This document shows positions 47,060 through 51,092 of a DNA stretch of 62,412 bases, in pieces. Origin of the DNA: Lachnospiraceae bacterium (GTDB taxonomy: Bacteria; Bacillota; Clostridia; Lachnospirales; Lachnospiraceae). A model generated the notes under the pieces. It did no database searches and was not told the DNA's origin. It worked only from the letters and a program-made list of their open reading frames with translations. Where the stretch lies: contig JAFSIQ010000015.1 of NCBI GenBank assembly GCA_017439675.1, forward strand, positions 1 to 62,412, written 5' to 3'. Each line of letters starts with the position of its first letter. The stretch's first letter is position 1. A program made the translations under genes and the position numbers.

Positions 47060-47382
47060 AAACCGATGAGAAAGAGTAAGTAAGTCATATCCCTTTTTCC
47101 ACAGAGAACTGTAGGTGGTGAGATTACAGTGAAAAACATAGGACCGAATGGACTTTCGAGGGCAATCAGAAATAGAGAACTGTGTCTGTACTGAACAGTT
47201 ACAATTCTCCAGAGTATGTGCGACGGAGCAAGACTCTCCGTGAACAAAAGTCAGCATATGATGGTATGCGTTGAGTGGGCGTATTGTAATGATACGTCAA
47301 GCCGGGTGGCACCGCAGGTTGTATTTTCATCCTGTCCCAGCAGAATCTATCAACTGGGATGGGATGAAAGTACAACCTTTTT
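47060..47382 (+). promoter_or_regulatory. T-box leader specific for tRNA-Trp
   Basis: A tRNA-sensing leader. The early GATGAGAAAGAGTA part is the Stem I base. The specifier bulge reads GAA-TGG-A with the Trp codon TGG at 47150-47152. The T-box itself is GGGTGGCACCGC (47304-47315). Its TGGC would pair with the GCCA end of uncharged tRNA-Trp, which has discriminator G. Uncharged tRNA would stop the terminator at 47316-47382 from forming and so turn on the synthase gene. Confidence 0.9.
47316..47382 (+). terminator. T-box attenuator terminator
   Basis: AGGTTGTA...TTCATCC...TCCCAG pairs with CTGGGA...GGATGAA...TACAACCT, followed by TTTTT. It overlaps the antiterminator side of the T-box. Confidence 0.88.
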
Positions 47383-47403
47383 ATGATAGAAACTACAATA
47401 TGA

Positions 47404-47478
47404 GCATGTAGGTCAACAGACCGAAATGCGAATGTTGTGGCAATTACGAAAGTGCATAGCACGAAGCAATTGTTTTTT
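47404..47478 (+). promoter_or_regulatory. Two hairpins and a T-run downstream of the T-box
   Basis: The first hairpin is GCAT-GGTC-AACA-GACC-ATGC with internal loops. The second is CAATT...GTGC-ATA-GCAC...AATTG followed by TTTTTT. It looks like a further terminator between the T-box and trpB2. Confidence 0.4.
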
Positions 47479-47531
47479 CAATTCATTCTTTACCTTTCAT
47501 TCCTGTCCCCAACAAGAAAGGAGACAGCATT

Positions 47532-48905
47532 ATGTCAGAAAGAAAAATCCCTTACAAAATCTACTTAGAAGAAAACGAGATGCCAAAGAAATGGTATAAC
47601 CTTCGTGCTGACATGAAAAACAAGCCAGCACCACTATTAAATCCTGGTACACTACAACCAATGAAAGCAGAAGATCTTGCGCCAGTGTTCTGTGAAGAGT
47701 TAATCAAACAGGAACTAGATGATACCACTCCTTACTTTGACATTCCGCAGGAGATTCAGGACTTCTACAAAATGTACCGTCCTGCGCCTTTGGTTCGCGC
47801 TTATTGTCTGGAAAAGAAATTGCAGACCCCTGCGAAAATTTACTACAAATTCGAGGGTAACAATACTAGTGGAAGTCACAAATTGAACTCTGCCATTGCA
47901 CAAGCTTACTATGCCAAGCAGCAAGGCTTAAAGGGTGTAACCACTGAGACCGGAGCTGGTCAATGGGGAACCGCTCTCTCCATGGCATGCTCTTACTTTG
48001 ACTTGGATTGTAAAGTATACATGGTAAAGGTATCTTATGAGCAAAAACCTTTCCGTCGTGAGGTAATGCGTACCTATGGAGCATCTGTCACACCATCGCC
48101 TTCCACAGAAACAGAAATTGGAAAGAAAATTCTAGTTGCACACCCTGATACAACAGGAAGTCTTGGTTGCGCGATTTCAGAAGCAGTGGAAGTGGCTACA
48201 ACCTCCGAAGGGTACCGCTATGTACTTGGTAGTGTATTGAATCAGGTATTGCTACATCAATCTGTTATCGGCTTAGAAACCAAAGCTGCATTGGACAAAT
48301 ATGGCATTGAGGCAGATATTATTATCGGCTGTGCTGGTGGTGGCTCTAATCTTGGCGGACTTATTGCACCATTTATGCAGGAAAAGCTTCGAGGCGAAAA
48401 AGACTACCGCATTATTGCTGTAGAACCTGCTTCCTGTCCAAGTTTCACCCGCGGCAAATATGCATACGACTTCTGCGACACTGGTATGGTTTGCCCACTT
48501 GCAAAAATGTACACCTTGGGTAGTGACTACATTCCAGCACCAAATCATGCAGGCGGTCTTCGCTATCACGGTATGAGCTCCACACTGTCTCAACTATATG
48601 ATGATGGTCTAATGGAGGCGGTATCCGTTAGTCAGACCGATGTGTTCGCCGCCGCAGAAGAATTTGCACGGGTAGAAGGAATCCTCCCTGCTCCTGAAAG
48701 CTCGCATGCTATCAAAGTGGCCATTGACGAAGCATTGAAATGTAAGGAAACCGGCGAGGAAAAAACCATTGTATTCGGCCTTACAGGAACCGGATATTTT
48801 GATATGGTGGCATATGAGAAATTCCATGATGGTGTTATGGAAAACTATATTCCAACAGATGAGGAGATTGCGAAGAGTCTGTCAAAGCTACCTATTTTGA
48901 AATAA
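47532..48905 (+). CDS. Tryptophan synthase beta-like protein, TrpB2 type
   Basis: PLP enzyme that joins indole and serine to make tryptophan. 457 residues and the N-terminal extension (YLEENEMPKKWYNLRADM) mark the TrpB2 form, longer than the TrpA-partnered TrpB1. The PLP Lys is in NNTSGSHKLNSAIAQAYY. The phosphate-binding Gly-rich loop is GCAGGGSNLGG, and TETGAGQWGTALSMAC is the substrate loop. No trpA or other trp gene is near, consistent with salvage of indole. The Trp-specific T-box before it supports a role in tryptophan supply. AAGGAG precedes the ATG. Confidence 0.92.
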   Translation: MSERKIPYKIYLEENEMPKKWYNLRADMKNKPAPLLNPGTLQPMKAEDLAPVFCEELIKQELDDTTPYFDIPQEIQDFYKMYRPAPLVRAYCLEKKLQTPAKIYYKFEGNNTSGSHKLNSAIAQAYYAKQQGLKGVTTETGAGQWGTALSMACSYFDLDCKVYMVKVSYEQKPFRREVMRTYGASVTPSPSTETEIGKKILVAHPDTTGSLGCAISEAVEVATTSEGYRYVLGSVLNQVLLHQSVIGLETKAALDKYGIEADIIIGCAGGGSNLGGLIAPFMQEKLRGEKDYRIIAVEPASCPSFTRGKYAYDFCDTGMVCPLAKMYTLGSDYIPAPNHAGGLRYHGMSSTLSQLYDDGLMEAVSVSQTDVFAAAEEFARVEGILPAPESSHAIKVAIDEALKCKETGEEKTIVFGLTGTGYFDMVAYEKFHDGVMENYIPTDEEIAKSLSKLPILK

Positions 48906-49023: not shown

Positions 49024-50253
49024 TCATTCACTTATATCGGCGACATCCTTTTTATAATATTCATGCACCAGATTGCGATAACCCCACCTCTTCATCTGGT
49101 CATAGGTAATCTGATAATTCCCTTTGTTGTGCTTTCCCGTCACACAATAGCGAATATTTTGTTGCATGTAAGCATCAATTTCCTTCAAACCTTTATCCGT
49201 AGTTAAATTGGGAAAGAACCATCTACTCCATGTAAATTCTGTGCTCTTGTCCATAGCAAAAAACTTATAGTTCATGGCTTTAATAAAACCCTTTGCGGCA
49301 TGTTCACCAGTTAATCCTTTCTTCCTTGCCCAACGGCGAAGGGCTTCTGCCTTACGCTTAATCTTTTTCTTGATTTTCACCTTTGTGTGCTGGGACAAAT
49401 CCACTCTGCCATCCACATAGGAAAATCCCAAGAATTCCCATGGTTCTCCCGGTGCACTTATCTGTACCTTTTCCGGATTCAAGGACAAATGATGCTTTGC
49501 AATTGCATCATACAATTCCCGCTGCAATCCCTGTAACTTTATCGAATCATCAGCAAACAACAAAATATCATCGGAATACCGAAAATACAGAACGTTCTCC
49601 CTTTGAAAGTAATGGTCAACCTCTGACAAATACACGTTGGCAAAAAATGGTGACACAGGCGTACCTGCCATAGCACCTCTGCTTTCGGTTATAATTTCTC
49701 CATTCATCTGACAGACATCTGCCTTTAGCAGTTTTGCAAACAAACGAAACAACTCCTCATTATCTTTTTTCAAAAACTGCAATTTATCCAACAAAAGCTC
49801 CACATCAATGGAATTAAAATAATTACTGATATCTGTCTTGAGACAATACTTATCACCCATGTTGACAGTTCTTCGAATCCGCATAATAGCATCCTTTACA
49901 CCATAATTTCGACGAAAGGCATAACAATTGTTGGCAAAAACACCATCGTACTCATACAGCAAAAATGCTATCATTTTCAACACCATATTAAAATCTTCTG
50001 GATAGGAGTACACAATTCGCTTCTTCTTTGCCCCATCCTTATTGATTACCTTTTTCTCTGGTATCGGTGGCACATAATCCGAATTTTTCATCTTTTTCAA
50101 AATCGGCAGATACCGTTGCTCCGCTATATAGGTTGCAAGCATTTCCTGCTCCAACTTCGCCAAATGATGTTTTTCTATCTTATATTGTAAAAAATCCTGC
50201 CACACATCTGGCAGGGTCATTCGCTGTAAAATGTTCATGTTGTTCTCTTTCAT
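49024..50253 (-). CDS. Stand-alone reverse transcriptase
   Basis: RNA-directed DNA polymerase of 409 residues. Fingers and palm motifs are complete: RIVYSYPEDFNMVLK (RT1 region), ANNCYAFRRNYGVKDAI (RT2), KTDISNYFNSID with the first catalytic Asp at 141 (RT3), GAMAGTPVSPFFANVYL (RT4), RYSDDILLFADD with the YxDD box at 226-229 (RT5), LNPEKVQI (RT6) and FLGF (RT7). The C-terminal 120 residues are basic and thumb-like and contain YCVTGKHNKGNYQ; retron enzymes have a VTG motif in a similar place. No maturase, HNH, nuclease or Cas1 domain is fused, and no intron borders were seen. The class (retron, defence-type or other) is not assigned. A folded RNA candidate lies 70-80 bases upstream. Confidence 0.88.
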   Translation of the reverse strand: MKENNMNILQRMTLPDVWQDFLQYKIEKHHLAKLEQEMLATYIAEQRYLPILKKMKNSDYVPPIPEKKVINKDGAKKKRIVYSYPEDFNMVLKMIAFLLYEYDGVFANNCYAFRRNYGVKDAIMRIRRTVNMGDKYCLKTDISNYFNSIDVELLLDKLQFLKKDNEELFRLFAKLLKADVCQMNGEIITESRGAMAGTPVSPFFANVYLSEVDHYFQRENVLYFRYSDDILLFADDSIKLQGLQRELYDAIAKHHLSLNPEKVQISAPGEPWEFLGFSYVDGRVDLSQHTKVKIKKKIKRKAEALRRWARKKGLTGEHAAKGFIKAMNYKFFAMDKSTEFTWSRWFFPNLTTDKGLKEIDAYMQQNIRYCVTGKHNKGNYQITYDQMKRWGYRNLVHEYYKKDVADISE

Positions 50254-50321
50254 CTTGTACCTAATTCCTTACACACCTGTAGCAAGGCTACATTCATTCT
50301 TCTATAGTGCAAACACTTTTC

Positions 50322-50471
50322 AAAAATAAAAAAGGAAAGAGAAAGCGCTTTGAAGGAATGAAAGCGTGCTTCATTCTACCAGACTGAACACATCCCTGTC
50401 ACCTGCAAAACCTTATATGGAATATGCTTCGCCCTCCACAGGTATAACAAATGTTATGTTTCTCTTTCCTT
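50322..50471 (-). ncRNA. Candidate structured RNA upstream of the reverse transcriptase
   Basis: On the minus strand AAGGAAAGAGAAA (50459-50471) and TTTCTCTTTCCTT (50332-50344) are exact complements over 13 bp. They enclose about 114 bases and are followed by a T-rich run (TTTTTTATTTTT overlapping the end). Inside are ATAACA/TGTTAT, ACCTG/CAGGT with a smaller GCGAA/TTTGC stem, and GAATGAA/TTCATTC hairpins. Complementary ends around a folded core, just before an RT gene on the same strand, resemble retron msr-msd or defence-RT RNAs. It is not matched to any known type. Confidence 0.5.
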
Positions 50472-50486
50472 GTTACCAATTTTACA

Positions 50487-50543: not shown

Positions 50544-51092
50544 TTACAAATATTTTGCAATTCGATTCTTCACATAAGATGACTCATTCGGCATATACTC
50601 AAAAAAGTCAAGCATTGGTACATCCCACTGGTAACAAAAGTCCCAAACTTCACGATTTGCAACGTGATTATATGTATTATAGTCCTTCCACAAACGGATG
50701 TACAACTTACACTGACCATCCTTGTAAATACCATAAGAAATTGCATCTGGCTCACAGTAACATTTACTACTTCTGCGTGTGTAAATATCCTGTCCATACA
50801 TCTGTTCAATTTCCGCCAATGCAACATTACTCTTCAATTCATAGCCACCGGCATTTTCTAAAATTTCTTTCAGTTTCACCTCAAACACCGCATGTCTGCC
50901 ATGTTCCTTCACTGCATCTGCCGCCTGTGATAATTTGTCCGCCTGACGATTCACCACTGGCGTCACATTCTCATCCACCATTTCTCGAATCTTGCTATTT
51001 ACAGCACTGGACACAGAATCACTCACCGCATTCGTTAAGGTTCTTGTCGCCTCTCTTGTCACGTTACGTACAATTCGGTCTAATAATCCCAT
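50544..51092 (-). CDS. Cytosolic protein of unknown function
   Basis: Not recognised. 182 residues. The first 75 residues are an Asn/Thr/Val-rich helical stretch (LLDRIVRNVTREATRTLTNA, then NRQADKLSQAADAVKEHG), likely amphipathic. The rest is a compact domain with many aromatic residues and two Cys in SSKCYCEPDAI; it ends WDVPMLDFFEYMP and a basic tail. No signal peptide or membrane helix. AGGAGG precedes the ATG. It lies upstream of the RT region in the same direction, but a hairpin and about 290 bases separate them, so a partner role is only a possibility. Confidence 0.6.
   Translation of the reverse strand: MGLLDRIVRNVTREATRTLTNAVSDSVSSAVNSKIREMVDENVTPVVNRQADKLSQAADAVKEHGRHAVFEVKLKEILENAGGYELKSNVALAEIEQMYGQDIYTRRSSKCYCEPDAISYGIYKDGQCKLYIRLWKDYNTYNHVANREVWDFCYQWDVPMLDFFEYMPNESSYVKNRIAKYL

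What the first reader, a model, noticed from the sequence alone, without database searches (positions are those of the whole stretch)
49024..50471. Reverse transcriptase with a closed, structured RNA candidate just upstream
The sequence shows a complete stand-alone RT and, on the same strand 70-80 bases before it, about 150 bases bounded by perfect 13-bp complementary ends and finished by a T-rich run. The interior folds into at least three short hairpins. Retrons and several defence RTs (known families) have this layout, with the RNA serving as template or primer. The RT4 and RT5 motifs (GTPVSP, YSDD) and the VTG near the thumb do not place it clearly. No effector is fused; the 182-residue protein upstream (50544-51092) is the only near candidate partner. 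That this is a working RT-RNA pair is inference.
Basis: partly seen in the sequence, partly recalled or inferred. Interest (0 to 1): 0.85.

Follow-up and report, generated by a model that had tools for sequence, protein, structure and literature searches.

The report
Reverse transcriptase, RNA and partner unit
A gut-type bacterium carries a compact unit of a reverse transcriptase, a folded RNA and a small partner protein, all from families already catalogued or close to them, that tend to occur together and look like an untested anti-phage system.

Summary
The RT (49024-50253, -) is intact and belongs to PADLOC class UG26 (541.6 bits; next UG class 123). The RNA upstream is a catalogued family, Rfam RF03026 "RT-5" (56.5 bits, cut-off 45.7), so the RT-RNA pair is not a new kind. 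A six-pair pseudoknot, absent from the Rfam structure line, is kept in 46 of 46 loci with compensatory changes at five pairs. The 182-aa protein upstream has a conserved C-terminal domain, found just before the RNA in 28 of 46 loci and rare outside UG26 genomes; relatives match PADLOC's RTasCOG2852. Single relatives fuse that domain to a TIR-TPR protein or a SngC/BrxH-like helicase, suggesting immunity with exchangeable effectors. In two genomes RNA and RT are 1.2 and 7.3 kb apart, so the RNA is not merely an RT leader. It is not a retron by RT class or motifs. A DRT10-like A-B-A' template pattern was tested and not supported. Template, cDNA product and defence activity are untested.

The parts
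49024..50253 (-). UG26 reverse transcriptase (likely true start 50238)
50342..50447 (-). RT-5 RNA core (Rfam RF03026)
   Evidence: 56.5 bits, gathering 45.7
50459..50471 (-). closing helix P0, 5' arm
50332..50344 (-). closing helix P0, 3' arm
50444..50457 (-). hairpin SL1 (AUAAC/GUUAU)
   Evidence: read from sequence; present in the fold
50438..50443 (-). pseudoknot 5' strand (ACCUGU)
   Evidence: 46 of 46 loci keep all six pairs, G-U counted as a pair
50401..50406 (-). pseudoknot 3' strand (GCAGGU), in the loop of the central hairpin
50356..50376 (-). hairpin SL3
   Evidence: Rfam alignment and sequence
50345..50355 (-). unpaired loop between SL3 and P0 in the conserved fold; candidate template (hypothesis)
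50322..50333 (-). T-rich run after P0 (terminator-like)
50479..50484 (-). weak -10-like box TAAAAT (hypothesis)
   Evidence: 5 of 6 match
50544..51092 (-). partner protein, 182 aa; amphipathic N-terminus
50547..50888 (-). partner C-terminal domain (RTasCOG2852/DUF2726-like)

Best explanation
A three-part UG26 unit of the defence-associated RT (DRT) kind: partner protein, RT-5 RNA and RT. Shown by sequence: the RNA is a closed, pseudoknotted structured RNA that co-occurs with UG26 RTs; a partner with a COG2852-like C-terminal domain is encoded just before it in most loci and rarely elsewhere. Inferred: the RNA binds the RT through its pseudoknotted core, the closing helix holds the 3' loop near the active site, and the RT copies part of the RNA into DNA. 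The RT-RNA(-DNA) complex controls the partner: its C-terminal domain docks on the complex and its N-terminal module (here a probably membrane-binding amphipathic helix; in single relatives TIR or helicase) acts when phage disturbs the complex.
For: RT class: 541.6 bits to UG26. RNA: RF03026 above cut-off. Association: 22 of 22 RT-5 genomes among the 26 UG26 genomes of 392 sampled (hypergeometric 3e-32, relatedness ignored); 11 of 11 loci found by RT alone carry the RNA; 8 of 8 UG26 genomes of the genus, the window's included. Closing helix and pseudoknot, repeated in 6 of 6 new loci, one with a weaker helix. Partner: 28 of 46 loci; 15 of the 17 genomes holding the domain are among the 26 UG26 genomes; it is in 2 of 368 phylum genomes, the window's and UG26 genome G028 (UG26 itself was not searched in that sample); found in 4 of 6 new loci, one of the two misses at a contig start; RT-partner Mantel r 0.81; PADLOC names its relatives RTasCOG2852 and files them under DRT. 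Fusions: TIR+TPR (L089), SngC/BrxH-like helicase (L012). RNA not just a leader: 1.2 and 7.3 kb from the RT in G584 and G474. An exact TATAAT 22-45 nt upstream is found in 12 of 18 partner-less loci but 2 of 25 partner loci (p 1e-4), fitting one transcript where the partner is present. A 2025 preprint says all characterised UG RTs are implicated in phage defence (PMC12632851, Discussion).
Against: No expression, binding, cDNA or defence data. 18 of 46 loci lack the partner upstream and at most four have an excuse (L025, L030 at contig ends; L063, L064 with RNA and RT apart), so it is dispensable or replaced in many. Correlated distances also arise from shared inheritance; no host-gene control was run. 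The domain profile was trained on many of the loci it then finds. The effector fusions are one locus each: PADLOC finds nothing in the TIR protein, NCBIfam's Thoeris match to it is far below cut-off, and the helicase also resembles non-defence helicases, all below NCBIfam cut-offs. The A-B-A' test was negative (observed 2.91, shuffles 3.08). RNAalifold on the plain alignment finds the central stem but not the closing helix. The C-terminal 'YY' once considered as protein primer is not strictly conserved (29 and 28 of 35).
Confidence: 0.6

Rival explanations
1. The RNA is a bound scaffold or allosteric switch of the RT and is not copied; DNA synthesis is untemplated or absent.
For: No template signature beyond a short conserved loop; the loop can pair with the SL3 3' strand in the window.
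Against: RT catalytic residues are conserved in 35 of 35. Class 2 DRT RNAs studied so far are templates (PMC13174585, passages), but the class of UG26 was not tested here.
Confidence: 0.2
2. The RNA is a cis-acting leader or attenuator controlling the downstream RT gene (closing helix plus T run as terminator).
For: It sits 5' of the RT and ends in a T-rich run; some other loci have a separate terminator-like hairpin before the RT (by eye).
Against: In G584 and G474 the RNA, pseudoknot kept, is 1.2 and 7.3 kb from the RT. Exact TATAAT boxes precede the RNA in 12 of 18 partner-less loci, which fits a separate transcript but would also fit a leader. The pseudoknotted core is conserved beyond a terminator's needs.
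Confidence: 0.08
3. A retron: closing ends are a1/a2 and the RNA yields branched msDNA.
For: Layout of complementary ends, hairpins and an adjacent RT.
Against: RT profile UG26 541.6 bits; NCBIfam retron St85 61.6 bits, cut-off 235. Recalled retron motifs NAxxH 1 of 35 and VTG 8 of 35. The RNA matches RT-5 and no other family at the gathering threshold.
Confidence: 0.04
4. A non-immune, domesticated RT-RNA function (for example DNA repair or regulation).
For: Searches of phage, plasmid and viral collections gave no close relative, although a paper reports UG26 RTs in cold-seep viral contigs (PMC10504277, passages). A sister clade without RT-5 includes a B12-radical-SAM fusion.
Against: Patchy distribution (26 of 392 and 8 of 26 genomes); TIR and SngC/BrxH-like fusions of the partner domain, one locus each.
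Confidence: 0.08

Closest known systems
Rfam RF03026 RT-5 RNA
   Same: Matches end to end at 56.5 bits, upstream of an RT
   Different: Adds the closing helix, SL1 and a six-pair pseudoknot that the Rfam structure line does not show; the original description could not be read
PADLOC RT_UG26 and RTasCOG2852 (filed under DRT)
   Same: RT is UG26; 14 of 22 short relatives of the upstream protein match RTasCOG2852
   Different: The window's own partner is not found by the PADLOC model; no RNA was reported with them by that protein library; no functional study found in the held papers
DRT10 (UG17) with SLATT and ncRNA
   Same: Three parts; RNA described as a large stem-loop carrying smaller ones, with a template loop after the last hairpin (PMC12632851)
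   Different: UG17 profile only 100 bits; partner not recognised as SLATT; A-B-A' pattern not supported; RNA lies between partner and RT, not before the partner
DRT9 and DRT2
   Same: RT with an ncRNA
   Different: RT profile 85 and 64 bits; no long poly-U template seen in the 3' loop
Retrons
   Same: Complementary-ended RNA beside an RT and an effector-like partner
   Different: RT family and motifs, RNA family

Membership tests
RT-5 RNA (RF03026) | Score above Rfam gathering threshold | tested here: met
   56.5 vs 45.7 bits
RT-5 RNA (RF03026) | Linked to an RT gene | tested here: met
   window RT ORF 88 nt downstream; 22 of 22 RNA genomes of the order sample also hold UG26
UG26 RT | Best match to the UG26 profile over the whole protein | tested here: met
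   541.6 bits, residues 6-402, profile 1-395/398
UG26 RT | Intact polymerase residues | tested here: met
   D136, Y-S-D-D 221-224
DRT (defence) system | Anti-phage activity | not testable with these tools
   needs plaque assays
RTasCOG2852 | PADLOC profile match by the window's own protein | tested here: not met
   0 families at E<=1 and E<=0.01; 14 of 22 aligned relatives match
RTasCOG2852 | Homology and position through relatives | tested here: met
   profile A4 108 bits in the window genome (the window's sequence is in that profile); blastp 2.75e-41 to L003; position
PD-(D/E)XK nuclease (COG2852/DUF2726) | Catalytic acidic residues and lysine | tested here: inconclusive
   none seen conserved by eye in A4; hhalign to one DUF2726 protein 89.7%, E 1.8e-6 over 56 columns
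DRT10 (UG17) | UG17-type RT | tested here: not met
   100.1 vs 541.6 bits
DRT10 (UG17) | SLATT partner | tested here: not met
   no SLATT match to the 182-aa protein
DRT10 (UG17) | A-B-A' repeat in the template loop | tested here: not met
   43 loci: mean longest repeat 2.91 vs 3.08 in shuffles, 434 of 500 as high
Retron | NAxxH and VTG motifs (recalled) | tested here: not met
   1 and 8 of 35
Retron | 2'-5' branched msDNA | not testable with these tools
   needs DNA isolation
Group II intron | Intron RNA and intron RT profile above cut-off | tested here: not met
   no intron RNA among the two Rfam matches of the window; 131 vs cut-off 300 bits

The most novel reading that the evidence does not exclude
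UG26 is a modular immune platform: a COG2852-derived, catalytically dead docking domain plugs interchangeable effectors (membrane-binding helix, TIR, SngC/BrxH-like helicase) into an RT bound to a pseudoknotted RNA whose short 3' loop, held by the closing helix, templates a small DNA product that keeps the effector silent.
Probability: 0.25. Interest if true: 0.8.

Novelty: new member of a known kind. Interest (0 to 1): 0.5.

Why it matters
UG RTs have given unexpected DNA-writing chemistry (de novo genes, homopolymers, telomere-like repeats; PMC12632851). No study of UG26 function turned up in the held library (searches; one search lists three papers with the word, of which PMC10504277 only reports UG26 RTs in viral contigs). 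This work ties three separately catalogued families into one unit, gives a fuller RNA model, and names testable effector modules. Each step can be tested with RT pull-down, sequencing of bound DNA, and phage assays in laboratory strains.

Tried and rejected
A-B-A' direct repeats in the 3' loop: not enriched over shuffles in 43 loci, near-duplicates L014, L016, L020 dropped. Column identity test: the best of the pairs tried (-1 with +12) has z 4.0, not corrected for the number of pairs and judged to reflect sequence subtypes; rows L014, L016, L020, L063, L066 and L073 were dropped, and rows were anchored on an AA, so that the two A's are constant by construction. L073's loop lacks the motif.

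C-terminal YY as protein primer: not strictly conserved; Y357 and Y379 (Tyr in 34 of 35) remain candidates only.

Empty-site comparison: in the 11 genus stretches around trpB (some short), tblastn found trpB but none of the seven other window genes tried, so the unit's borders could not be read. A 3-genome DNA search did not help.

Partner fold: the PDB profile search gave only chance-level matches (best E 0.085).

RT class beyond UG26 (class 1, 2 or 3): no tree with other RT classes was built; not tested.

Mobile origin: viral contigs gave no relative by pattern scans; phages 27 and plasmids 4758 records, all under 60% identity. Only 20 rows of each were shown: 16 of 20 plasmid rows are annotated group II, 16 of 20 phage rows are retron-type or unannotated. 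Against this, PMC10504277 reports UG26 in cold-seep viruses (passages).

Full report
What was found. The window's RT (49024-50253, minus strand) matches PADLOC RT_UG26 at 541.6 bits over residues 6-402; among the next models are a general RT (135), UG4 (123), UG27 (123), UG17 = DRT10 (100) and DRT9 (85). The RNA upstream is Rfam RF03026 RT-5, 50342-50447, 56.5 bits with cut-off 45.7.

Association. In one sample of 392 genomes of the order, UG26 is found in 26 (E <= 1e-60) and RT-5 in 22, and all 22 are among the 26. The four UG26-positive genomes without RNA are G334, G381 and G362, which have distant RTs (L055-L057; L055 and L056, set as outgroup, form one supported group in the tree), and G120, whose RT is truncated (L058, by eye). 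A lenient Rfam scan of L055-L058 shows no RT-5. Eleven of eleven loci fetched by RT similarity alone carry the RNA, as do eight of eight UG26 genomes of the genus, the window's included (L149 is the same locus as L003). In a class sample RT-5 is found in 15 of 391, one of them below the cut-off.

RNA anatomy. I assembled 46 loci: the window, 11 found by RT, 21 and 13. Aligned from the inner end over 43 loci (three near-duplicates dropped), each of the ten tabulated positions carries more than one Watson-Crick pair type; the stems there were chosen for best pairing, which favours pairs. A pseudoknot between the strand after SL1 and the loop of the central hairpin has six pairs in 46 of 46 loci. 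Five pairs show compensatory Watson-Crick changes and the sixth is C-G or U-G; mean pairs kept 6.0, against 5.4 (maximum 5.6) over 1000 shuffles of partners. The search pattern allowed two letters per position of the 3' strand, except the first, which was fixed as G. RNAalifold on the plain alignment of 29 sequences finds 13 pairs of the central stem, 12 with compensatory changes, but not the closing helix, whose arms that alignment does not register. Six new loci of the genus keep the pseudoknot in 6 of 6 and the closing helix in 6 of 6, one of them weaker (L146).

The 3' loop between SL3 and the closing helix is short. In 40 loci anchored on an AA (so the A's are constant by construction), U two places before the first A is constant and three places after the A's vary freely. 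By position it corresponds to the template loop described for DRT10 (PMC12632851: Results parts 1 and 2, the evolution section, figure legends part 1 and Discussion read). The DRT10 signature, a direct A-B-A' repeat, was not enriched. I therefore name the loop only as a candidate.

Not just a leader. In G584 and G474 the RNA is 1.2 and 7.3 kb from the RT, with other genes between, and it keeps its closing helix and pseudoknot (L063, L064). An exact TATAAT lies 22-45 nt before the RNA core in 12 of 18 partner-less loci and in 2 of 25 partner loci (Fisher p 1.3e-4), as expected if the RNA is transcribed with the partner gene where that is present and from its own promoter otherwise. The 18 include the two contig-end and two split loci, and the range was set, so the p-value is descriptive. 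In one search, with a looser rule, 25 of 43 loci had a -10-like box against a mean of 14.4 (maximum 24) in 300 shuffles.

The partner. The 182-aa protein has no useful match in Pfam, NCBIfam, PADLOC or PHROGs. A single-linkage blastp cluster of 24 proteins spans 19 of 32 stretches examined (11 printed as L002-L012, 20 fetched, and the window region); only 12 of its members were printed and the window's own gene was missed there, displaced by an overlapping ORF. Direct blastp from the window's protein reaches L003 at 2.75e-41 and five more loci below 1e-4. An iterated profile finds the family before the RNA in 28 of 46 loci, three of them near-duplicates. Of the 18 misses, L025 and L030 are at contig ends and L063 and L064 are the split loci; in the other 14 the upstream gene looks unrelated by eye, or there is none. 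The conserved part is the C-terminal ~100 residues (alignment A4). A4 finds 17 of 392 order genomes: 15 are UG26 genomes; G290 is a partner-like gene cut by a contig end; G258 is a DUF2726 protein. In 368 genomes of the phylum it finds only the window's genome and G028, both UG26 (UG26 was not searched in that sample, so this shows rarity, not linkage). In the six new loci it is found in four; L147 starts at a contig end and L146 lacks it. PADLOC's RTasCOG2852 model matches 14 of 22 short members, though not the window's, so, judging by its name, the pairing of this partner with RTs was known to that library's sources. Profile comparison ties the domain to the DUF2726 protein (89.7%, E 1.8e-6, 56 columns); catalytic residues of such nucleases do not look conserved (by eye), so I infer a docking rather than a cutting role.

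Exchangeable N-termini. Most of the 22 short members, including the window's, start MGLFxKLF-like. The first 18 residues of the window's protein have hydrophobic moment 0.72 against 0.29 shuffled; many others are weaker, and L019, L009 and L094 show none. In single loci the domain is the C-terminus of a TIR+TPR protein (L089, 876 aa; TIR_2 E 3.7e-11), a DEAD-box helicase (L012, 849 aa; PADLOC SngC 762 bits, BrxH 389), a coiled-coil-like protein (L091) or a zinc-ribbon protein (L009). PADLOC finds no family in L089, and NCBIfam gives the helicase only sub-threshold matches, to non-defence helicases among others. TIR and SngC/BrxH as defence modules is from recall and PADLOC's listing. This is the main ground for reading the unit as immune.

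Co-inheritance. Mantel correlations: RT-RNA 0.77 (40 loci), RT-partner 0.81 (24), RNA-partner 0.67 (25), none of 5000 permutations as high. Shared descent alone can give this. On a quick RT tree partner presence changes at least nine times, and partner-bearing rows occur on both sides of the tree.

Mechanism and likelihood. Best reading (0.6): an RT-RNA complex that controls the partner. Shown: family assignments, structure conservation, association, partner fusions. Inferred: RNA binding by the RT, DNA synthesis, docking, effector control, phage defence. The mechanism rests on analogy with other UG systems: all characterised UG RTs are said to be implicated in defence (PMC12632851, Discussion) and class 2 RNAs studied so far are templates (PMC13174585, passages). 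The class of UG26 was not tested here.

Novelty. RT-5, UG26 and RTasCOG2852 are all catalogued, so this is a new member of a known kind. What I did not find in Rfam's structure line or in listings of the held papers is the closing helix, the pseudoknot, the three-part unit and the exchangeable N-termini. The two papers most likely to hold earlier notes are not in the library.

Noticed in passing
L162:656-4468 (G334 contig C60); RT part as L055:1510-2697: A 1271-aa ORF joins a TIGR03960-like (224 bits, below the 462 cut-off) B12-binding radical SAM region to a UG26-like RT; no RT-5 RNA found in L055.
   Followed up: partly
L056/L057 (G381, G362); L163: UG26-related RTs without RT-5 RNA in their loci; L056 groups with the radical-SAM fusion RT in the tree (L057 was not in the tree).
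   Followed up: partly
window 47365-47480 (+): Clostridiales-1 RNA (RF01699, 61.6 bits) just upstream of the PALP-family (trpB-like) gene 47532-48905.
   Followed up: no
window 50347-50365 (-): In the lowest-energy fold GCUUU (50365-50361) of SL3 pairs with AAAGC (50351-50347) of the 3' loop; similar alternatives seem possible by eye in other UUCAAAGC-type loci. A possible switch, unexplained.
   Followed up: no
L078 (G474) and L079 (G584): RNA and RT separated by 7.3 and 1.2 kb; in both the RNA lies beside a gene that looks by eye like a glycoside hydrolase (family not searched).
   Followed up: partly
L012:2312-4858 and L012:4886-6218: A metagenome contig labelled Bacteroidales carries UG26, RT-5 and a helicase-fused partner, suggesting wide transfer or mis-binning.
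   Followed up: no
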